Source: Ralstonia pickettii DTP0602 (lineage in GTDB: Bacteria; Pseudomonadota; Gammaproteobacteria; Burkholderiales; Burkholderiaceae). From it: a stretch of 64,000 bases of DNA. The first letter of the stretch is position 1, and every line of letters begins with the position of its first letter. Under the pieces are notes generated by a model. It worked only from the letters and a program-made list of their open reading frames with translations. It had not been told where the DNA came from and did no database searches. The position numbers and the translations under genes were made by a program. Positions 2,623 to 30,158 of this stretch are shown in pieces. The stretch lies in the NCBI GenBank assembly GCA_000471925.1, contig CP006668.1, positions 620,001 through 684,000 on the forward strand, read 5' to 3'.

Positions 2623-3951
2623 TCAGCGCAGGGAGCGGAACGCGGCGCGCACCTCGGCGCTGAACAGCGCCGGCTCTTCCCAGGCCGCGAAGTGGCCGCC
2701 CTTGTCTACGCGGTTGTAGTAGACCAGGTTCCGATAGGTCCGTGCCGCCCAGTGCTTCGGCGGCCTGTAGACCTCTCCGGGGAAGATCGTCACTGCCGCC
2801 GGGATCGAGATGCCGGTCCCGCTGGCCGCGCCCGGATTGCTCTCCGCGTAGATGCGCCCGCTCGACGGCCCGGTGTTGGTCAGCCAGTAGAGCGTGATGT
2901 TGTCGAGCAGCTCGTCGCGGGTCAGCGCGCGCTCCGGGTCGCCGCGGGTGTAGACCCAGTCGGCGATCTTGTCATAGATCCACGCCGCCAGTCCCACGGG
3001 CGAGTCGGCGAGGCTGTAGCCCAGCGTTTGCGGACGCGTTCCCATGATCGCGGCGTAGCCCAAGCCCTTGTTGAGGAACTCCCTGGCCTGGTCGAATACC
3101 GCCTGCTCCTCGGCAGTCAGGCCCTCCGGGGCAGGGTCGCCGCTCTTCAGTGCCCTGGCAATTTCCGGCGGGAGCGTCGTCGCGCGCTCGATCCGGTTGA
3201 CGTGGATGCCGAGCAGACCGGCAGGCGCCTGGCGGCCCATCGCATCGGAAATGATGGCGCCCCAGTCGCCGCCTTGCGAGACGTAGCGCGTGTATCCCAG
3301 GCGCTTCATCAGGACGTCCCAGGCGCGGCCGATGCGGTCCGGATTCCAGCCGGTGCCCTTGGGCTTCTCCGAAAAGCCGAAGCCAGGCAGGGACGGCAGC
3401 ACCAGGTGGAAGGCATCGTCGGCAGAGCCGCCGTGCGCCGTGGGATCGGTCAGCGGACCGATCACCTTCAGCAACTCGAAGACCGACCCGGGCCAGCCGT
3501 GGGTCATGATCAGCGGCAATGCGTTCGGATGGCGGGAGCGGACGTGGATGAAATGAGTGTCCAGACCGTCGATATTGGTCAGGAACTGCGGCAAGGCATT
3601 GAGTTTCGCCTCGGCCTTGCGCCAGTCGTAGCCGGTCTGCCAGTAGCGCACCAGCGGCTGAAGCTTGTTGAGCTGCACGCCCTGCGCGCGGTCACTGACC
3701 GGCTCGGCGTCGGGCCACCGCGTCGCGGCCAGGCGGCGGCGCAGGTCGGTGAGCGCCGCTTGCGGAACGTTGACGCGAAAAGGGCGGATGGCGTCTGTGG
3801 CTGCGGCCCGCGCCCCGGCGGCCTGTGCCGTATCGGACGGGGTGGCGGCCGTTACCGGACGAAATGCCGCAAGGGCTGCCGCCGCCGCGCCGCTCAGCAA
3901 CAGAGCCCGGCGGGACAGGACGGTAGCGTTGGGAGATTCCGATGCATTCAT
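2623..3951 (-). CDS. Secreted epoxide hydrolase-like alpha/beta hydrolase (EHN domain), Tat-type leader
   Basis: Microsomal-type epoxide hydrolase fold: an N-terminal EHN segment (IRPFRVNVPQAALTDLRRRL, then WP) followed by an alpha/beta-hydrolase domain. Seen motifs are HGWPGS (oxyanion hole), GGDWG with the nucleophilic Asp near residue 229, and GGHFAAWEEP near residue 420 carrying the charge-relay His. The leader has SRRALLLSG then an Ala-rich hydrophobic stretch, a twin-arginine signal, so export in folded form is inferred. The ATG at 3951 is preferred over one 42 bases upstream because AGGAAG stands seven bases before it. It follows the secreted cupin gene by 53 bases on the same strand, probably one operon. 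442 residues. Substrate unknown. Confidence 0.85.
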   Translation of the reverse strand: MNASESPNATVLSRRALLLSGAAAAALAAFRPVTAATPSDTAQAAGARAAATDAIRPFRVNVPQAALTDLRRRLAATRWPDAEPVSDRAQGVQLNKLQPLVRYWQTGYDWRKAEAKLNALPQFLTNIDGLDTHFIHVRSRHPNALPLIMTHGWPGSVFELLKVIGPLTDPTAHGGSADDAFHLVLPSLPGFGFSEKPKGTGWNPDRIGRAWDVLMKRLGYTRYVSQGGDWGAIISDAMGRQAPAGLLGIHVNRIERATTLPPEIARALKSGDPAPEGLTAEEQAVFDQAREFLNKGLGYAAIMGTRPQTLGYSLADSPVGLAAWIYDKIADWVYTRGDPERALTRDELLDNITLYWLTNTGPSSGRIYAESNPGAASGTGISIPAAVTIFPGEVYRPPKHWAARTYRNLVYYNRVDKGGHFAAWEEPALFSAEVRAAFRSLR

Positions 3952-4004
3952 GGTCGCACTTCCTGGACTCTGGTCTTCAGTATCGCGGTGCATTCAGGTC
4001 ACGC

Positions 4005-4406
4005 TCACTTGCCCGGTACGGCCAGCGGAGCGCCTTTCTTGACAATGTAGGTAGCGAGCTCCGCCGCCTTGCCGGTGCCGACATTCCGTGCCGAGTGGGC
4101 CGTTCCCGAGGGGATGAACAAGCTCTCGCCGGCCTTGAGCGTGACCGGCGGCTGGTCCCCGAGCTGGTACTCCAGCGTGCCTTCGAGGACAAAGGCGACT
4201 TCTTCGCCCGGATGAGAATGCTTCGGGGCAAACGCGCCCGGGTCGAAATCGACTCGCACCTGGACGGCCTCGCGTCCGGGCACGCTGATATCCTGCTTCA
4301 GCAGGTCCGTGCGATGGATGCCCACGGCCTGCGCCTGGGCCGCTTGCATCGCCATGCTGCTACCGACGACCAGCAACGCAGTCGCAATGAGTCGAGTCGT
4401 TTTCAT
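4005..4406 (-). CDS. Small secreted cupin-domain protein
   Basis: A 133-residue protein with a cleavable Sec-type leader (hydrophobic core followed by AQAQA) and a single cupin barrel. The two cupin motifs are visible: KHSHPGEEVAFVLEG (G-x5-HxH-x3,4-E-x6-G) with His/His/Glu metal ligands, and the downstream FIPSGTAHSARN (G-x5-PxG-x2-H) with the fourth His. A metal-dependent binding or oxygenase/isomerase role in the periplasm is possible; no specific reaction can be assigned. It is the first gene of a probable operon with the epoxide hydrolase, and a copy of the 18-bp TTGTAY-N5-TGTRTCA motif lies about 200 bases upstream in the same orientation. Confidence 0.85.
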   Translation of the reverse strand: MKTTRLIATALLVVGSSMAMQAAQAQAVGIHRTDLLKQDISVPGREAVQVRVDFDPGAFAPKHSHPGEEVAFVLEGTLEYQLGDQPPVTLKAGESLFIPSGTAHSARNVGTGKAAELATYIVKKGAPLAVPGK

Positions 4407-4604
4407 TTGGAGGTCCTTTCATGCCCGGGGCATGCGTGTTAAGTGAACTGATGCGTGAGATGGCGATGACCGCCATCCGGTATCCGGAAAGCGCGGTGTC
4501 AACGCCGCGTTTCGAAGCCAGTGACACCATTTGAGCAGCGTGACGTATTGGGGATGTATCGGCCGGGCGGGGTTTTCGTAAGCGCGTGTGTTCGCGGTAA
4601 CGGC

Positions 4605-4622
4605 TGACACACTGCGATACAA
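4605..4622 (-). promoter_or_regulatory. Candidate response-regulator box, copy A
   Basis: On the minus strand this reads TTGTATCGCAGTGTGTCA. It matches copy B (6569-6586) at 15 of 18 positions and conforms to TTGTAY-N5-TGTRTCA. The two TGTA/TGTG half-sites are spaced ten bases apart as direct repeats, as is usual for OmpR/PhoB-family regulators. It is co-oriented with, and upstream of, the cupin/epoxide hydrolase operon. Binding by the regulator encoded at 6685 is inferred. Confidence 0.55.
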
Positions 4623-4623
4623 A

Positions 4624-4661
4624 GCGGGCACCGCGAAGGCAGTGCCCGCCTCATTTTTTTT
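4624..4661. terminator. Hairpin with T-tract just downstream of the DipZ-like gene
   Basis: GCGGGCAC (4624-4631) pairs with GTGCCCGC (4642-4649) across a ten-base loop, followed on the plus strand by TCA and nine T residues. It starts 13 bases beyond the stop of the minus-strand DipZ gene. On the minus strand the stem is followed only by TTTG, so leftward termination would be weaker. The strong T-tract faces rightward, where no plus-strand gene precedes it. Confidence 0.6.
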
Positions 4662-4662
4662 C

Positions 4663-6456
4663 CTAGCCGAAGGTGAAGGCATAAGCCTGGGCACCGGGAT
4701 CCAGGAAGCGGATCTCGAAAGTGTGTTCTCCGACCTCGCCGGCCTGGCGTACCAGCTGGTAGAGCCGCGTCTGCGTGACCGCGCCGTTGCCGGCCGCATC
4801 GATGTCGGCGCCGTGGCTGGCGCCCGGGGGCTTGCCGTCGATGGTGACCACGAAGCGCACCGCCCGGCCGTCGGCCGCCGGTCCCAGCACCAGGTGCAGG
4901 TCGCGCGCGTGGAAGCGATAGGCGATGCTGCCATCGGCACGATTGAGCGTGGCCTGCTCGACGCCGACCGTCCACTGCCCGGACAGGCCCCACTGGTTGA
5001 GGCGAAGCCTGGCAACGGTGTACTGGCTCGGCGCGTCCTGCCGAATGCCGCCCGGCGAGGCGAAATTGGACGCCTGCGTATAGCCGAGATAGGTCTCGTT
5101 CGAGCGCAGGTTCGACAGGTCCGGTGCCGCTAGCGCGCCACCCGCCTCGGGAACGACCACATCGCGCGCCACCGACCGGTTGCCCGCTTCCGCCAGCAGC
5201 GACTGGATCACGCGCTCGGACTTGGCATAGTCGCCCTCGCCGAACTGGTGGTGGCGGATATTGCCGCTGGCGTCGACAAAGTAGGCGGCCGGCCAGTAGC
5301 TGTTATGGAACGCGCGCCAGATGCGGTAATCGCTGTCCACGGCCACCGGGAAGCCGATGCGGAAGTTGGCGATCGCGCGGCGCACGTTTTCCGGGCTCTT
5401 CTCGAAGGCGAACTCGGGCGTGTGCACGCCAACCACCGTCAGGCCCTGATCCTTGTACTTCTCCGCCCAGGCGCGCAGGTAGGGCAGGGTGCGGATGCAG
5501 TTGATGCAGGAGTAGGTCCAGAAGTAGACCAGCGTGACCTTGCCGTGCAGCTGCTCGCGCGACAGCGGCGGGGAGTTGAACCATTGCACGGCTCCGTCGA
5601 GCGCAGGCAGGCGGCCTTCCACGGGCAACGGGCCCGGGAAACCCGCCTGGGTGTCATTGGCGGCCAGCAAGATGCCGCCGCCACCGCTGGCGGCGTTGGT
5701 GGCTTGCGGCGCGGGCTGTTGTTCCTTGCGCAGCCCGTCGACCAGCGCCTGCTCGATGCCGGTCGGCCCGCTGAACGGAAAGTGCACCAGCAGGCTGGTG
5801 TCGGCACCACTGCCGATGAGGACCACGCCGCCCAGCACGCCCGCCCCCAAGCCGCGGCGCAGCCATTCGCTTGCACCCATCGACCGCTTCATCGCCGCAA
5901 AGACGCGGTTGCCCAGGCCCAGCGCCGCCGCCAGCGAGGTGGCCGCGCCGGCCGCATAGGCCGCCAGCGCCACCGATGTCGACACGCTGGCACCTTCAAG
6001 GGCGGTGCCCGTCAGGACCAGACCGAGGATCGGGCCGGCGCAGGGCGCCCACAGCATGCCGGTGGCGATGCCAAGCACCAGCGAACCCCACGGCGAAGCC
6101 TGGGCTGACGCAGCGGCGTTGGCCGGACCGTTGTTGGCCAGCCGGTTGCCCAGCGCCACCACAGGCCGTGCGAGGATATCCGCCAGTTTCGGCCAGAGCA
6201 GGGACAGCCCGAACACGCCCAGCAGCACCAGGGCAGCAAGGCGCCCGGCTTCGTTGGCACGCACGGCCCACGCGCCGCCAGCGGACGCCAGCGTGGCCAC
6301 CCCGGCAAAGGTCAGGGCCATGCCGGCCAGCATCGGCAGCCTGCCGCGCAGGAACGGCTGGCCGGTGCGGCTCAGCACAAAAGGCAGGACGGGCAGGATG
6401 CACGGGCTCAGGATAGTCAGTACACCCCCGAGGTAGGCGAGGATCAGCAGGGCCAT
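4663..6456 (-). CDS. DipZ-like membrane thiol-disulfide protein (CcdA/DsbD domain + TlpA-like redoxin + C-terminal jelly-roll)
   Basis: Predicted to carry reducing equivalents across the inner membrane to a periplasmic thioredoxin-like domain. Residues 1-240 form a CcdA/DsbD-type bundle opening with YLGGVLTILSPCILPVLP and containing a second Cys motif, GMLWAPCAGPILGL; these paired Pro-Cys motifs are the membrane redox centre. A periplasmic TlpA/redoxin domain follows (about 290-425) with WTYSCINCIRT, whose CxxC is near residues 317-320. The last 165 residues resemble the carbohydrate-binding-like C-terminal domain of mycobacterial DipZ. The ATG at 6456 begins at the first transmembrane segment and has AAAGGA upstream; the longer frame lacks support. 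597 residues. It is divergent from the response regulator and shares motif copy B with it. Confidence 0.88.
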   Translation of the reverse strand: MALLILAYLGGVLTILSPCILPVLPFVLSRTGQPFLRGRLPMLAGMALTFAGVATLASAGGAWAVRANEAGRLAALVLLGVFGLSLLWPKLADILARPVVALGNRLANNGPANAAASAQASPWGSLVLGIATGMLWAPCAGPILGLVLTGTALEGASVSTSVALAAYAAGAATSLAAALGLGNRVFAAMKRSMGASEWLRRGLGAGVLGGVVLIGSGADTSLLVHFPFSGPTGIEQALVDGLRKEQQPAPQATNAASGGGGILLAANDTQAGFPGPLPVEGRLPALDGAVQWFNSPPLSREQLHGKVTLVYFWTYSCINCIRTLPYLRAWAEKYKDQGLTVVGVHTPEFAFEKSPENVRRAIANFRIGFPVAVDSDYRIWRAFHNSYWPAAYFVDASGNIRHHQFGEGDYAKSERVIQSLLAEAGNRSVARDVVVPEAGGALAAPDLSNLRSNETYLGYTQASNFASPGGIRQDAPSQYTVARLRLNQWGLSGQWTVGVEQATLNRADGSIAYRFHARDLHLVLGPAADGRAVRFVVTIDGKPPGASHGADIDAAGNGAVTQTRLYQLVRQAGEVGEHTFEIRFLDPGAQAYAFTFG

Positions 6457-6568
6457 GATCGAGGTCCTTTCGCAATGGTTTGGCTTGCCATCGATCAGAC
6501 ACCGCCGGCGTCGCTGCAATGTGTCGCCATCGGCGGATAATGTGTACGATTGTTGAGGCGCCGCCGCC

Positions 6569-6586
6569 TGATACATTGCGGTACAA
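6569..6586 (-). promoter_or_regulatory. Candidate response-regulator box, copy B (divergent dipZ/regulator promoter)
   Basis: Minus-strand sequence TTGTACCGCAATGTATCA, 113 bases upstream of the DipZ-like start and about 100 bases upstream of the response-regulator start. TGTAC and TGTAT are direct half-sites ten bases apart. The outer 13 positions are identical to copy C (8816-8833); all five differences fall in the spacer. Autoregulation plus control of dipZ is inferred. Confidence 0.6.
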
Positions 6587-6684
6587 GAAAAATCGCGCCT
6601 GTTGCGCCTCATCGCCTCCCCCCATGCGCCCCACCGCATGGCGATGCGGACGGGCCGTTCCTATTCAGCGCAAAGAGGACATCG

Positions 6685-7428
6685 ATGGATTCCCATGTCG
6701 ACCATATCCTGATCGTCGATGACGACCGGGAGATCCGTGAACTGGTTTCGGCCTACCTCACCAGGAACGGCCTGCGCACGACCGTCGTGCCGGATGGCCG
6801 GCACATGCGCGCGTTCCTGGAGACCAATGCCGTCGACCTGATCGTGCTCGACCTGATGCTGCCCGGCGATGACGGCCTGGTGCTGTGCCGGGAACTGCGC
6901 GCCGGCAAGCACAAGGCCACCCCAGTGCTGATGCTGACCGCGCGCGACGACGAGACGGATCGCATCGTTGGCCTGGAAATGGGCGCCGACGATTACCTGG
7001 CCAAGCCGTTCGCGGCGCGCGAGCTGCTGGCCCGCATCAAGGCCGTGCTGCGCCGCACCAGGATGCTGCCGCCCAACCTGCAGATCAGCGTGGCCGGGCA
7101 GGTGCTCGCGTTCGGCGACTGGCAACTGGATACCACCGCGCGCCAGCTGGTCGACCGCGAAGGCACCATCGTCGCGCTCAGCGGCGCGGAGTACCGGCTG
7201 CTGCGCGTCTTTGTCGACCATCCCCAGCGCGTGCTCAACCGCGACCAGCTGCTCAGCCTGACGCAGGGCCGCGAGGCGGAGATGTTCGAGCGCTCGGTTG
7301 ACCTGCTGGTCAGCCGCCTGCGCCAGCGCCTCAATGACGATGCGCGCGAGCCCAGTTATATCAAGACCGTGCGCAGCGAGGGCTATGTGTTCGCCATGCC
7401 CGTGGAGATCAAGGAGGCACGGGAGTGA
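6685..7428 (+). CDS. OmpR-family response regulator
   Basis: Two-domain transcription factor. The receiver (about 1-125) has the acidic pocket VDDD near residue 11, the phosphoacceptor Asp56 in LIVLDLMLPGDDG, Thr in LMLTARD and Lys in YLAKPF. The C-terminal winged helix (about 150-240) ends in the usual VDLLVSRLRQRL...IKTVRSEGYVF pattern. Length 247 residues is standard. The ATG at 6685 follows AGAGGA by five bases. Its stop overlaps the GTG of the histidine kinase (GTGA), so the pair is translationally coupled. It is divergent from the DipZ-like gene; the three TTGTAY-N5-TGTRTCA copies nearby are proposed as its targets. Confidence 0.95.
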   Translation: MDSHVDHILIVDDDREIRELVSAYLTRNGLRTTVVPDGRHMRAFLETNAVDLIVLDLMLPGDDGLVLCRELRAGKHKATPVLMLTARDDETDRIVGLEMGADDYLAKPFAARELLARIKAVLRRTRMLPPNLQISVAGQVLAFGDWQLDTTARQLVDREGTIVALSGAEYRLLRVFVDHPQRVLNRDQLLSLTQGREAEMFERSVDLLVSRLRQRLNDDAREPSYIKTVRSEGYVFAMPVEIKEARE

Positions 7429-8726
7429 GTGCGCGGCACTGGCCCTGGCCGCGCACGCTGGGATCGCGCCTGTTCCTGATCCTGCTGGCAGGCCTGATCG
7501 TCGCCCATGGGCTGTCCTTCGGGGTGCTGTTCGCGGAACGCTACATCACTGCGCGCAGGGTGATGCTCGGCACGCTGGAAAACGACGTGTCCACCTCGCT
7601 CGCGATCCTGGACCGCGTGCCTGCCGCCGAGCGCCCGCAGTGGTTGCCGCGCGTGAACCGTGGCGCTTATCAGTACATGCTGGGTCCGGGTATGCCGGGC
7701 GTGCCCCAGATGACGCCGCAGGCCAAGGAGATTGCCGACCGGATCATGGAGGCGAGCGGCGGCCGCTTTGCGGTCCGGGTGGAATCGATCCCCGGTCAGG
7801 GCAAGCGCATGCAGGCACACCTGACGCTCAGCGACGGCAGCCCGCTGACCATCGACGTGCACCCGCGCCCGACGCCGATCGCGCAGTGGCTGCCTTATGT
7901 GCTGGTGCTCCAGTTGCTGCTGCTGGTGCTGTGCTGCTGGTTCGCTGTGCGGCTGTCGATCCGCCCGCTGGTGGCGCTGGCCGATGCCGCCGACGCGCTC
8001 AACCCGAATGCGAAGACGGCGCCGCTTGCCGAGACCGGTCCCACCGAACTGGTGCGCGCGGCACACGCATTCAATGCCATGCGTGAGCGCATCGCCGGGT
8101 TTGTCGAGGAACGCGTACGGCTGCTGGCGGCGATCTCCCACGACCTGCAGACGCCGATCACGCGCATGAAGCTGCGCGCCGAGATGGCGGAAGACTCCGA
8201 CGACAAGCGCAAGATGGCGCAAGACCTGGCCGAGATCGAAGCGCTGGTGCGGGAAGGGCTGGCGTATGCGCGCACCACCCATGGCGATGGCGAAAAGGCG
8301 TCGCGGCTCGACCTCGGCTCGTTTGTCGAAAGCCTGGCATTTGACTACCAGGACACCGGCAAGGCGGTGACGGTGCTGCAGAACATCGGCGGAACCGTCG
8401 TGACGCGCCCCAATGCCTTGCGGCGGATCCTGACCAACCTGGTCGACAACGCCATCAAGTTCGGCGGGGCGGCGGAGCTGAGCGTGCGCCGCGAGGGCGA
8501 TGCCGTGGTCATCGAGGTACTCGACCGCGGCGCCGGCATCCCGGAAGACCAGCTCGAAGCCGTGCTGCAGCCGTTTGTGCGGCTGGAGGGTTCGCGCAAC
8601 CGGGAAACCGGTGGTACCGGGCTCGGGCTGGCGATCGCCCAGCAGCTTGCGGTGGCCATCGGCGGCTCGCTCAGGCTGCGCAATCGTGAAGGCGGCGGCC
8701 TGGTGGCGGAAGTCAGGCTGGGCTGA
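7425..8726 (+). CDS. Two-component sensor histidine kinase
   Basis: Inner-membrane sensor, 433 residues. One transmembrane helix near residues 10-35, a periplasmic sensing region of about 125 residues, a second helix near 155-175, and HAMP. The HisKA box is AAISHDLQTPITR with phospho-acceptor His239. ATP-binding boxes follow: RILTNLVDNAIKFG (N), DRGAGIPED (G1) and GGTGLGLAI (G2). The periplasmic part contains PEWLPRVNRGAYQY-like sequence without a recognised ligand domain, so the signal is unknown. The GTG start at 7425 overlaps the regulator stop. With DipZ, a secreted cupin and a repeat protein around it, a cell-envelope or redox cue is likely, but this is inference. Confidence 0.94.
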   Translation: MSARHWPWPRTLGSRLFLILLAGLIVAHGLSFGVLFAERYITARRVMLGTLENDVSTSLAILDRVPAAERPQWLPRVNRGAYQYMLGPGMPGVPQMTPQAKEIADRIMEASGGRFAVRVESIPGQGKRMQAHLTLSDGSPLTIDVHPRPTPIAQWLPYVLVLQLLLLVLCCWFAVRLSIRPLVALADAADALNPNAKTAPLAETGPTELVRAAHAFNAMRERIAGFVEERVRLLAAISHDLQTPITRMKLRAEMAEDSDDKRKMAQDLAEIEALVREGLAYARTTHGDGEKASRLDLGSFVESLAFDYQDTGKAVTVLQNIGGTVVTRPNALRRILTNLVDNAIKFGGAAELSVRREGDAVVIEVLDRGAGIPEDQLEAVLQPFVRLEGSRNRETGGTGLGLAIAQQLAVAIGGSLRLRNREGGGLVAEVRLG

Positions 8727-8815
8727 CTGGCCATCCCGCAGCCGCTTCCGAGGGGGAAGGGAAGTGCATCATGCGCGTCACCTGCGCACTCGCTGGCCGC
8801 CCGTCCTCCGCAGAT

Positions 8816-8833
8816 TTGTACGCTTCTGTATCA
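8816..8833 (+). promoter_or_regulatory. Candidate response-regulator box, copy C (upstream of the repeat protein)
   Basis: Plus-strand TTGTACGCTTCTGTATCA, 157 bases before the start of the DPFTDGAR repeat protein and co-oriented with it. The conserved outer blocks TTGTAC and TGTATCA equal those of copy B exactly. It lies in a 263-base gene-free stretch between the kinase and the repeat gene. Confidence 0.55.
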
Positions 8834-8989
8834 AGACCCCACAACGATACGCACATGCACAGTAACGGCCATAACTCGCTACTGGCGCGATACATCGGTC
8901 TCCTTAAATACGTTCCGTAGCCAGCCGGCGCATCGCAAACCAGCGATCCGGGGCTGCACCAGCCACCGCAAACTTTAAGGAAGCCGATC

Positions 8990-9325
8990 ATGACCACCAC
9001 CAACATCGCCAAGCGTTTTGTGTTCGCCGTTGCCCTGGTTGCCGCCGCTGCCGGCGCGCAGGCCGCCGGAATCTCCAGCGCCCGCGACCCGTTCACCGAC
9101 GGTGCCCGTTCGGTCCACTCGGAGCGCAGCACATTTACCGATGGCGCGCGGGCTGTCGATCCCTACACCGACGGTGCGCGCAACGTGGACCCGTTCACCG
9201 ACGGCGCACGCAACGTGGATCCGTTCACCGACGGCGCCCGCACGCTGGCCGGCATGGATCGCACGGGGGTCTCGGCGGATCCGGCGCGCCATGTCGATCC
9301 CTATCTCGACGGCGCCTACGCCTGA
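8990..9325 (+). CDS. Small secreted protein of ten-residue DPFTDGARNV-type repeats
   Basis: A 111-residue protein with a Sec leader (hydrophobic VFAVALVAAAAGAQAA, likely cleaved near residue 26). The mature part is almost entirely repeats of the pattern (D/S)(P/T)(F/Y)TDGAR(N/S/A/T)V: units at residues 33-42, 47-56, 57-66, 67-76 and 77-86, plus a degenerate last unit DPYLDGAY at 103-110. There is no Cys and no membrane segment. The acidic-aromatic-Gly-Arg pattern resembles no enzyme; structural or ligand-binding roles are possible. It lies directly downstream of the two-component genes and carries motif copy C upstream, so it is a likely member of their regulon. Function unknown. Confidence 0.85.
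   Translation: MTTTNIAKRFVFAVALVAAAAGAQAAGISSARDPFTDGARSVHSERSTFTDGARAVDPYTDGARNVDPFTDGARNVDPFTDGARTLAGMDRTGVSADPARHVDPYLDGAYA
9086..9247 (+). repeat. 30-bp tandem coding repeats in the secreted repeat protein
   Basis: Units begin at 9128, 9158, 9188 and 9218 at exact 30-base spacing, with an earlier offset unit at 9086. The third and fourth (ACGGCGCACGCAACGTGGA and neighbours) are nearly identical at DNA level, which points to recent slippage duplication and possible copy-number variation between strains. Confidence 0.8.
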
Positions 9326-9415: not shown

Positions 9416-11176
9416 CTAGCTCAGCCCTCGCCCCGCGGGTGCGTCCACCAGACCCCGGGCAATAAAGCGGTGAATCTGCGCCACCACGGCCGCGCCTTCG
9501 CCCACCGCCGACGCGACACGCTTGGTGGATCCGGAGCGAACGTCGCCGATGGCGAAGACACCCTCCACGCTCGTCTGCAAGGGCAGTGTCTGCAAGGGCG
9601 CATCGGCCACGTCGGTGCCGGTCAGGACGAAGCCCTTGCTGTCCAGCGACACGCCGCAGTTCCTGAGCCAGTTGGTATTCGGCTCGGCGCCGATGAATAC
9701 GAACAGGTGATGTGTCGTCAGGCTGCCTTCCATGCCGCCGGCACCGCGATAGCGCACGCGTTCGAGACGCGCATCCCCCTCCAGCGCGGTCAGTTCCACC
9801 CGTGTATGCAGCGTCACGTTCGGCAGCGCGCCGATCCGTTCGATCAGGTAGTGCGACATGCTGTGCGCCAGGCTCGCCCCGCGGATAAACATGTGCACAT
9901 GCTCGGCATGCGCGGCCAGGAAGACCACCGCCTGCCCCGCCGAGTTGCCGCCGCCGACCAGCAGCACCGGTTCCTTGCGGCATAGCCGCGCCTCGATCGG
10001 CGTCGCCCAGTAATAGACGCCGCAGCGTTCGAAACGCGCCAGCCCGTCCACGGCAGGACGCCGGTACTCGGCGCCGCTGGCGACGACCACGGTGCGCGCA
10101 AGGATGCGGCGGGCATCGGCAAGCTCCACCACCAGCGGCTGCCTGTCGCAATACATCGCCTTGACTTCGCACGGGATGCCGATATGCGCACCGAACTTCT
10201 GCGCCTGCACGAACGCGCGGCCCGCCAGTGCCTGCCCCGTGATGCCCGTGGGAAAGCCCAGGTAGTTCTCGATGCGCGCACTGGTGCCGGCCTGGCCGCC
10301 GGGCGCGCGGCAGTCGAATACCACGACCGACAGCCCTTCGGACGCCGCGTAGACGGCCGTCGCCAGCCCCGCCGGGCCGGCGCCGACGATCGCCACATCG
10401 TAGACGTGCGTCGGATCAAACTCCGGGATCAGTCCCAGGCACGACGCGAGCTGTCCCACATCGGGGTTGCGCAGCACGGTGCCGTTCGGGCAAATAACGA
10501 GCGGGAAGTCATCGGGCTGTGGCGTCACGCGTTCGAGGAAGGCGATGGCTTCCGCGTCCTGCTCCGCATCGAGCACCATGTTTGGAAATGCATTGCGGCG
10601 CAGGAAGTCCTGCAACGCGACCAGTCGCCCATCGCCGGGGGCGCCGACCAGGACGGCACCCCGGCCGCGTTCGATGGCCAGCACACGCCTGAGGATCAGG
10701 GCGCGCATGATCTTCTCGCCAAGATCGGCTTCGCTGATCACCAGGGCGCTGAGCGCATCCGGCCGCAGCAGCACCGCCTCGACGTCTTCGACGACGTGCG
10801 CGTCGACGATCGCTGGCTTGTTCGACAGCTGGGTGATATCCGAGGTGAACTCGCCGCGCTGGGTATAGGTGTGGACAATGTGGTGACCCATGCCCTCGCG
10901 AATGACGATCCGCACTTTGCCCGACAGCAGCAGGAACATGCCCGGGCAGAGGCTGCCGGATTGATAGAGGAATTCACCCCTGGTGTAGTGGCACTGGCTG
11001 CCGAAGCGGCGCACGCGGTCGATTTCGGTCTCGGTGAGGACCGGGAACATCTGGAAGTAGCGCGGATGTTCGCGCACGCTCGGGTCTTCGACCAGCGCGC
11101 TGTCGTCGATACCGCTCGCATCCACGGCTGGCTCAGGGGTGAGCTTGCCGCCGCCCGGGCTTGACTCGTTGCTCAT
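9416..11176 (-). CDS. Cyclic-nucleotide-domain/thioredoxin-reductase-like FAD oxidoreductase
   Basis: Three-part cytoplasmic protein, 586 residues. Residues about 40-160 form a Crp-type cyclic-nucleotide-binding beta-roll (LSGKVRIVIREG... then GEFTSDITQLS). Residues about 175-255 resemble a thioredoxin-fold linker. From about 265 a thioredoxin-reductase-like domain has DVAIVGAGPAGLATAVYAA (FAD), VVASGAEYRRP, VLLVGGGNSAGQAVVFLA (NAD(P)) and GVFAIGDVRSGSTKRVA. The redox-active CxxC of thioredoxin reductase is missing: the position reads GVYYWATPIEA. The family with this fusion is known, without a firmly assigned substrate. The ATG at 11176 follows AGGAGA by seven bases. An adenylate cyclase is encoded 1.7 kb away; a cAMP link is inference. 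Confidence 0.88.
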   Translation of the reverse strand: MSNESSPGGGKLTPEPAVDASGIDDSALVEDPSVREHPRYFQMFPVLTETEIDRVRRFGSQCHYTRGEFLYQSGSLCPGMFLLLSGKVRIVIREGMGHHIVHTYTQRGEFTSDITQLSNKPAIVDAHVVEDVEAVLLRPDALSALVISEADLGEKIMRALILRRVLAIERGRGAVLVGAPGDGRLVALQDFLRRNAFPNMVLDAEQDAEAIAFLERVTPQPDDFPLVICPNGTVLRNPDVGQLASCLGLIPEFDPTHVYDVAIVGAGPAGLATAVYAASEGLSVVVFDCRAPGGQAGTSARIENYLGFPTGITGQALAGRAFVQAQKFGAHIGIPCEVKAMYCDRQPLVVELADARRILARTVVVASGAEYRRPAVDGLARFERCGVYYWATPIEARLCRKEPVLLVGGGNSAGQAVVFLAAHAEHVHMFIRGASLAHSMSHYLIERIGALPNVTLHTRVELTALEGDARLERVRYRGAGGMEGSLTTHHLFVFIGAEPNTNWLRNCGVSLDSKGFVLTGTDVADAPLQTLPLQTSVEGVFAIGDVRSGSTKRVASAVGEGAAVVAQIHRFIARGLVDAPAGRGLS

Positions 11177-11338
11177 CGCCGATTCTCCTCGGCGCCAATT
11201 GGGGTGAATCGGCGCCGCTATCGCGTAGTCACCGGTGTCCACGGAAATGACTGTGCGCTGTGGCCGCCTGATAAAACGAGAGTATTCAAGTTGAGGCGGC
11301 CAGCCAAGTAGTCTTGCATTCGCGCTTTGGCGTCGCCG

Positions 11339-30142: not shown

Positions 30143-30158
30143 ATTACGGTTTTGTCAT
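30143..30158. promoter_or_regulatory. ATTAC-N6-GTCAT box upstream of the heavy-metal-type response regulator
   Basis: ATTACGGTTTTGTCAT lies 79 bases before the response-regulator start, in a 327-base gene-free stretch (29910-30236) that otherwise shows no gene. It matches the site at 32312-32327 at 12 of 16 positions, and both have ATTAC facing GTMAT across six bases. Autoregulation by the adjacent regulator is inferred. Confidence 0.5.

What the first reader, a model, noticed from the sequence alone, without database searches (positions are those of the whole stretch)
4605..8833. Three copies of an 18-bp motif suggest a local regulon of the response regulator at 6685
TTGTAY-N5-TGTRTCA occurs at 4605-4622 (minus), 6569-6586 (minus) and 8816-8833 (plus). 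Copies A and B match at 15 of 18 positions; B and C match at all 13 non-spacer positions. Each faces its downstream gene: the cupin/epoxide-hydrolase operon, the DipZ-like gene (and the divergent regulator) and the secreted repeat protein. TGTA half-sites ten bases apart fit an OmpR-family dimer. Together with the operon-coupled kinase this outlines an undescribed envelope-redox or stress module.
Basis: partly seen in the sequence, partly recalled or inferred. Interest (0 to 1): 0.75.

Follow-up and report, generated by a model that had tools for sequence, protein, structure and literature searches.

The report
Conserved operator of an OmpR-like regulator
The three short DNA motifs are halves of a 45-base control site, found again in many related bacteria, through which a two-component regulator most likely controls itself and a set of secreted stress-protection proteins.

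Summary
Confirmed and extended. All three 18-mers are where stated. Each is one arm of a 45-bp pseudo-palindrome: TGTAY-N5-TGTATC, 13 bp, then the same element inverted. A 22-position model of it finds only these three sites in the window (17, 18, 20; nothing else reaches 15; none of 16 or more in 40 random sequences). In 40 genomes of the genus the full operator matches in 35, its reversed control in 0. The regulator is found in 36; the 4 genomes without it (one only 54% complete) lack the operator. The site lies upstream of 24 of 24 regulator copies in loci taken around the regulator, and operators lie near orthologs in Rhizobium, Pseudomonas and others chosen by protein alone (36 of 43 at >=70% identity, control 0). 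The regulon is not local. In the genus it covers CopQ-like metal-stress proteins (the 'secreted repeat protein'), OsmC/Ohr, redoxins, secreted alpha/beta hydrolases and the cupin/epoxide-hydrolase operon (operator within 300 bp of 11 of 30 cupin homologs, within 1500 bp of 18). Binding, direction of control and the signal are inferred. I judge it a new variant of OmpR-type regulation.

The parts
4577..4621 (-).
   Evidence: operator of >=16 within 300 bp of 11 of 30 cupin homologs, within 1500 bp of 18
4555..4560 (+). Distal half-site of operator A (TGTATC, inverted relative to A, offset 61)
   Evidence: offset peak at 60/61 over 155 sites
6541..6585 (-). Operator B: TGTACCGCAATGTATC-N13-TCAACAATCGTACACA (18 of 22), between the DipZ-like gene and the response regulator
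   Evidence: the first arm is upstream of 24 of 24 regulator copies in loci taken around the regulator
6520..6525 (+). Distal half-site of operator B (TGTGTC, offset 60)
8817..8861 (+). Operator C: TGTACGCTTCTGTATC-N13-GATACGCACATGCACA (20 of 22), upstream of the CopQ-like gene
8878..8894 (+). Third, promoter-proximal inverted pair of half-sites (GCTACT, weak, and GATACA), proposed to overlap the -35 region
   Evidence: conserved in 29 non-redundant CopQ-like promoters
8904..8909 (+). Proposed -10 element TTAAAT (conserved CCTTAAAT block)
   Evidence: no consensus sigma-70 promoter is found by the scan, so this is inference
6685..7428 (+). OmpR-family response regulator (receiver + winged helix), the proposed binder
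   Evidence: Pfam Response_reg and Trans_reg_C; closest named family OmpR but below its cut-off
7425..8726 (+). EnvZ-like sensor histidine kinase, start overlaps the regulator's stop by 4 bases
   Evidence: HAMP, HisKA, HATPase_c; conserved Cys170 just before the HAMP domain
8990..9325 (+). CopQ-like small secreted protein with DPxTDG repeats; target of operator C
4663..6459 (-). DipZ-like protein with CxxC redoxin and C-terminal domain; target of operator B (start at 6459 chosen over the longer reading frame from 6639, which would run through the operator)
   Evidence: AhpC-TSA/Redoxin and Thioredoxin_10
4005..4406 (-). Exported-looking cupin, first gene behind operator A
   Evidence: Cupin_2
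2623..3993 (-). Epoxide hydrolase with Tat-like leader (by eye), second gene behind operator A
   Evidence: EHN, Abhydrolase_1; lies behind the cupin in other genomes too

Best explanation
The three motifs are arms of the operator of the OmpR-type response regulator encoded at 6685. One regulator dimer sits on each pair of half-sites spaced by 10 bp; two dimers lie head to head, 13 bp apart, on a 45-bp operator, and at CopQ-like promoters a third pair lies over the -35 region. When the EnvZ-like kinase (7425) senses an envelope stress it phosphorylates the regulator, which then raises its own operon and the DipZ-like redoxin from operator B, the CopQ-like protein from operator C and the cupin/epoxide-hydrolase operon from operator A, together with further sites elsewhere in the genome (CopQ-like genes, a second copy of the two-component system, a glyoxalase-like gene). 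Supported by comparative evidence: regulator-operator pairing, geometry, target set. Inferred: binding, phosphorylation dependence, activation rather than repression, and the signal (oxidant, electrophile or metal in the periplasm).
For: Second arm at gap 13: mean 7.1 of 11 against at most 4.7 at any other gap from 0 to 40; 98 of 155 sites >=8, 0.13% of shuffles. Inverted half-site peaks at 29, 39, 60/61, 71/72. Site upstream of 24 of 24 regulator copies in genus loci taken around the regulator; these loci (23) all hold an operator >=17/22, control 1 of 23. Operator in 35 of 40 genus genomes, reversed control 0 of 40; regulator in 36 of 40; the 4 without regulator have none (Fisher p = 5e-5; not corrected for relatedness). 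Loci chosen by the regulator protein only (best 80 of more): operator >=17/22 anywhere in the locus in 36 of 43 (>=70% identity), 14 of 21 (58-69%), 2 of 16 (<58%), control 0 of 80. Half-site letters go with the recognition helix: D-LL TGTATC 55 of 70 half-sites, D-IQ TGTATC 16 of 23, D-VQ TGTAAC 12 of 17, D-NH TGTCGC 4 of 4 (only the 54 of 115 loci with a clear four-site array). Targets: CopQ-like gene behind 42, epoxide hydrolase behind 8 of 117 two-armed sites; cupin homologs 18 of 30.
Against: No binding or expression data. 38 of 155 examined sites lack a second arm of >=7 of 11, among them 13 of the 37 sites divergent from a regulator. 39 of 155 had no gene of my query set behind them (21 with, 18 without the second arm), and some are surely chance. 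12 of 30 cupin loci lack an operator >=16 within 1500 bp, and in 7 of the 18 with one it lies 961-1422 bp away, probably before another gene. 7 of 43 close regulator loci lack one >=17. The 18-mer of site A recurs identically in G005 and G028 without a second arm at gap 13. A second regulator (76% identical) shares the operator in this genome, so the split of work is unknown. Another own regulator (C1:4328898, 53%) has the same helix letters but no such site upstream.
Confidence: 0.85

Rival explanations
1. The operator is read mainly by another OmpR-family regulator of this genome, above all the 76% identical paralogue at C2:1706581, and the regulator at 6685 is a weak or minor user of the sites.
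For: The paralogue has the same recognition-helix core and the motif on both sides of its own operon. Four of 40 genus genomes carry only the paralogue type (G001, G014, G015, G053) and still have 1, 1, 1 and 3 operator matches.
Against: 28 of the 36 genus genomes with a regulator carry only the 6685 type, and it has the site directly upstream wherever its locus was fetched; so that type must be able to use it.
Confidence: 0.12
2. The motif is the site of an unrelated repressor (for example a TetR-type protein) that happens to control the same stress genes.
For: The operator is a pseudo-palindrome; site A's 18-mer occurs identically in two other genomes in other contexts.
Against: Operator and this regulator occur together in the genus and beyond it, in loci that share the two-component system but not always the same neighbours; half-sites 10 bp apart and letter changes that go with the OmpR-type helix.
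Confidence: 0.02
3. Site A alone is a by-product of the DipZ transcription terminator, whose T-rich tail it overlaps, and not an operator.
For: By eye, a hairpin after the DipZ stop codon runs into TTTGTATC; site A scores lowest of the three (17 of 22).
Against: Second arm at gap 13 and distal half-site at offset 61 as elsewhere; cupin loci in which no DipZ gene was seen keep the operator, e.g. L349 and L359. The terminator scan did not report the hairpin, whose loop exceeds its limit.
Confidence: 0.05

Closest known systems
E. coli OmpR/EnvZ
   Same: Best NCBIfam match of both proteins; tandem 10-bp half-sites bound by a dimer (stated in a passage read of PMC7380067); E. coli OmpR's helix core (recalled) is D-VQ, the class that goes with TGTAAC here.
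   Different: Below the OmpR and EnvZ curated cut-offs; half-site TGTATC; two dimers head to head with a fixed 13-bp centre; mostly stress genes as targets.
AgrR/AgrS of Cupriavidus metallidurans (PMC7380067)
   Same: OmpR-family system of the same genus that controls a CopQ-like gene (prsQ2) and itself; inverted plus phased direct half-sites.
   Different: AgrR box ATKACA-N4-TGTMAT, none at the three sites; silver, copper and czc targets; reported active unphosphorylated.
CopQ-like small periplasmic proteins of Cupriavidus (PMC2864759)
   Same: Signal-like leader and repeated (R)DxxTDG motif; confined to the genus in my set (24 of 24 against 0 of 16 other genomes).
   Different: Here tied to a TGTATC operator; the paper reports induction by metals.
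HprR/HprS (YedWV) of E. coli
   Same: Works like, if the redox reading holds: two-component system for periplasmic oxidant defence; a membrane cysteine in the kinase (recalled for HprS).
   Different: Regulator far below the HprR cut-off; its target msrPQ (recalled) was not searched for here.

Membership tests
OmpR/PhoB-family response regulator | Receiver domain plus winged-helix Trans_reg_C domain | tested here: met
   Response_reg 103.6 bits, Trans_reg_C 74.5 bits, both above cut-off
OmpR/PhoB-family response regulator | Binds tandem half-sites about 10 bp apart | tested here: inconclusive
   Pattern met in sequence; binding itself not testable with these tools
OmpR (equivalog) | NCBIfam NF007005 score at least 331 | tested here: not met
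   250.9 bits
EnvZ (equivalog) | NCBIfam NF007004 score at least 415 | tested here: not met
   188.1 bits
CopR/CzcR/SilR heavy-metal regulators | TIGR01387 score at least 279.2 | tested here: not met
   149.3 bits
HprR | NF008567 score at least 353 | tested here: not met
   124.9 bits
AgrR regulon | AgrR box ATKACAN4TGTMAT at the promoters | tested here: not met
   up to 2 mismatches: 2 matches in the window, at 30143 and 32312, none near the three sites, chance level
CopQ-like proteins | Repeated RDxxTDG motif | tested here: met
   strict form only once, DxxTDG four times; 42% identity over 89 columns to the CopQ candidate of pMOL30
CopQ-like proteins | Signal sequence | not tested
   N-terminus looks like a signal peptide; no predictor available
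CopQ-like proteins | Induced by metals | not testable with these tools
   Reported for other members in PMC2864759 (passages read)

The most novel reading that the evidence does not exclude
A widely spread, partly plasmid-borne subfamily of OmpR-type regulators across Proteobacteria shares one operator geometry, two tandem dimer sites head to head with a fixed 13-bp centre, while the half-site letters change in step with residues of the recognition helix; in Cupriavidus this subfamily governs an unnamed periplasmic-stress regulon that includes part of the CopQ family.
Probability: 0.6. Interest if true: 0.7.

Novelty: new variant of a known kind. Interest (0 to 1): 0.6.

Why it matters
It gives a testable operator and regulator for a part of the CopQ-like proteins, whose upstream regions the CH34 genome paper said were still being investigated for regulation (PMC2864759, passages read). 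It links them to redoxins, OsmC and secreted hydrolases in one regulon. The fixed geometry with changing half-site letters offers a natural code for how OmpR-type helices choose DNA, and the spread over rhizobial plasmids, Pseudomonas and enterobacteria suggests that the system moves between lineages.

Tried and rejected
A gene beside the paralogous system was first labelled MsrP from its position; Pfam showed an alpha/beta hydrolase, so an MsrPQ reading was dropped. The simple idea that the 18-mer is the whole site was dropped. I considered a TetR-type site for A because its 18-mer recurs in G005 and G028, and dropped it after cupin homologs showed the same two-armed operator. With 3 mismatches the single-arm pattern is at chance level in the window, and the three-half-site pattern with up to 3 mismatches gave 29 matches against 14 reversed in the own genome. 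The consensus promoter scan found no sigma-70 promoter, so the -10 proposal rests on conservation alone. Site C1:2007222 has no sensible target near and is probably chance. Ten paper searches listed no paper that I recognised as describing this operator or regulator; the library holds open papers only, I opened four papers for outline or passages (PMC7380067, PMC9045368, PMC7563307, PMC2864759), one search listed 20 of 142, and locus names such as SMb20218 were recalled guesses. Mijnendonckx 2019 is not held. The identification of RMET_RS30565 as CopQ rests on recalled gene order and its RDxxTDG repeats; the record says hypothetical protein. Rows dropped: 2 of 157 sites too near a locus end; not fetched: six listed sites of G041 and all sites beyond the cut listing. 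Gene classes take the first hit in a fixed order (regulator-divergent, then CopQ-like, then others), so sites before an operon count once.

Full report
Observation. The three 18-mers are present exactly as described. The window lies at C2:620001-684000 of an 8.1-Mb, three-contig genome; genus Cupriavidus is taken from the finding and from the CopQ-like family, as the genome itself is unnamed. The pattern occurs 14 times in the genome with at most one mismatch, 4 of these exact, against 1 for the reversed pattern. In 40 genomes including the own one it occurs 45 times exactly, in 20 of them, against 1 reversed. So it is far above chance, though in the window alone a count with 3 mismatches would not show it.

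What it is. Reading 39 sites side by side showed a longer conserved arrangement. I fetched most of the sites that one search listed (157 distinct sites, from the 217 counted) and scored, for each distance, an inverted copy of TGTAY-N5-TGTATC. At a gap of exactly 13 bp the mean is 7.1 of 11; at the other gaps from 0 to 40 it is 1.6 to 4.7, and 2.8 in shuffles. 98 of 155 sites reach 8, against 0.13% of shuffles. Inverted half-sites peak at offsets 29, 39, 60/61 and 71/72, and are rare elsewhere in the 117 two-armed sites; the 38 others show the peaks at 60/61 and 71/72 too, with some smaller ones. The operator is thus two tandem dimer sites head to head (16-13-16), often with a further phased inverted pair towards the promoter. 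The second arm is weak (<7 of 11) in 38 of 155 sites, 13 of them among the 37 divergent from a regulator. The model was shaped on these and related sites, so this is a consistency check rather than an independent test.

Link to the regulator. In the genus, 24 of 24 regulator copies in loci taken around the regulator (22 in L153-L173, with two in L160; the window's; its paralogue) have the site upstream in divergent orientation, 74-140 bp from the aligned start, 279 bp in L173. Regulators that one search added later (e.g. in G040, G045, G046, G048, G053, G055) were not all fetched. The full operator with at most one mismatch is found in 35 of 40 genus genomes (129 matches, summed by hand, some palindromes counted on both strands), its reversed control in none. 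The regulator is found at E <= 1e-80 in 36 of 40 (in which 68 candidates per large genome were scored). The four genomes without it (G012, only 54% complete, G016, G023, G047) have no operator; the one genome with regulator but no pattern match, G021, has an operator of 20 of 22 (L165). Fisher's test gives 5e-5, uncorrected for relatedness. Operators of 17 or more of 22 lie somewhere in 36 of 43, 14 of 21 and 2 of 16 of them, by falling identity, with 0 of 80 in the reversed control; in 23 genus loci it is 23, control 1. In the distant ones the geometry stays but the letters change: regulators with D-LL in the recognition helix go with TGTATC (55 of 70 half-sites), D-IQ also (16 of 23), D-VQ with TGTAAC (12 of 17), D-NH with TGTCGC (4 of 4, two loci). 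This rests on the 54 of 115 regulator loci whose array scored at least 13 of 16 by a model blind to those letters, and is not corrected for shared ancestry. The regulator is also common on plasmids, 176 of 72,556 records at E 1e-70, mostly rhizobial.

Targets. Of 117 two-armed sites, 42 precede a CopQ-like gene, 24 are divergent from the regulator, and others precede epoxide hydrolase (8), OsmC/Ohr (6), the DipZ-like gene (5), secreted alpha/beta hydrolases (3, and 5 divergent), TlpA-like redoxin (2) and a glyoxalase-like gene (1); 21 had none of my query genes (first hit in a fixed order). For 14 sites without a query gene I picked a likely downstream reading frame and ran Pfam on 8 of them: aldehyde dehydrogenase, four alpha/beta hydrolases, DoxX, an amidase and a porin. 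For site A the cupin homologs are telling: 18 of 30 (own included) have an operator of 16 or more within 1500 bp upstream, 11 of them within 300 bp, while the best of 30 shuffles of each region was 14-16. In G007:C3 an Ohr-TlpA-cupin-epoxide hydrolase row lies behind one operator, and in Sinorhizobium fredii cupin-epoxide hydrolase-regulator-kinase stand together (L273), though no operator of 16 or more was seen in that locus. The secreted protein of the window is CopQ-like: four DxxTDG repeats, one of them in the strict RDxxTDG form, 42% identity to the CopQ candidate of pMOL30, and confined to the genus in 40 genomes (24 of 24 against 0 of 16). The CH34 genome paper (PMC2864759, passages read) describes this family as metal-induced, with motif RDXXTDG, and restricted to Cupriavidus and Ralstonia.

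How it most likely works. The kinase senses an envelope stress and phosphorylates the regulator, dimers fill the paired half-sites, and the promoter-proximal pair at CopQ-like genes lies where a -35 element would be, upstream of a conserved TTAAAT. Activation and positive autoregulation are inferred from this layout and from the analogy with AgrR (PMC7380067; abstract and passages read), whose box is different and absent at the three sites. The signal is open. The gene content (OsmC/Ohr, CxxC redoxins, secreted hydrolases, cupin, CopQ-like) fits oxidants, electrophiles or metals in the periplasm. The kinase has a cysteine (Cys170, just before the HAMP domain, so probably in the second membrane helix) that is invariant in 33 sequences of at least 60% identity, which would fit redox sensing.

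Compared with the known. It works like OmpR/EnvZ at the level of DNA reading, but the proteins do not reach the OmpR, EnvZ, CopR/CzcR or HprR cut-offs. I found no description of this operator or regulon in ten searches of an open-access library, of which I saw listings and, for four papers, outline or passages; that is no proof of absence. I rate it a new variant of a known kind, well supported by comparison, untested at the bench.

Noticed in passing
G000:C2:109728-111047 (L014:1539-2858), operator at C2:111191-111235: A kinase closely similar to the window's, with the full operator upstream but no response regulator match near it: an apparent orphan.
   Followed up: partly
L160, L235, L243 (G005, G044, G043): Two copies of the two-component system in tandem, each with its own site upstream, one of the 88-89% and one of the 73-74% type.
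   Followed up: no
L173 (G007:C3:269225-276743): A second regulator copy that matches in two frames, beside an Ohr-TlpA-cupin-epoxide hydrolase row behind one operator.
   Followed up: partly
window 7425-8726: Cys170 of the kinase, just before the HAMP domain, is invariant in 33 kinases of >=60% identity, a possible redox sensor.
   Followed up: partly
window 9416-11242: Thioredoxin-reductase-like protein with a cyclic-nucleotide-binding domain, convergent with the CopQ-like gene; no operator of >=15 lies near it.
   Followed up: partly
L025:1501-1518 (G005:C4) and L037:1501-1518 (G028:C16): The 18-mer of site A recurs letter for letter in other contexts, in G028 with what looks like an inverted arm shifted by one base, in G005 without.
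   Followed up: partly
G000:C1:4328898-4329599 (L179): Own regulator at 53% identity with the same recognition-helix letters but no operator upstream: possible cross-talk.
   Followed up: no
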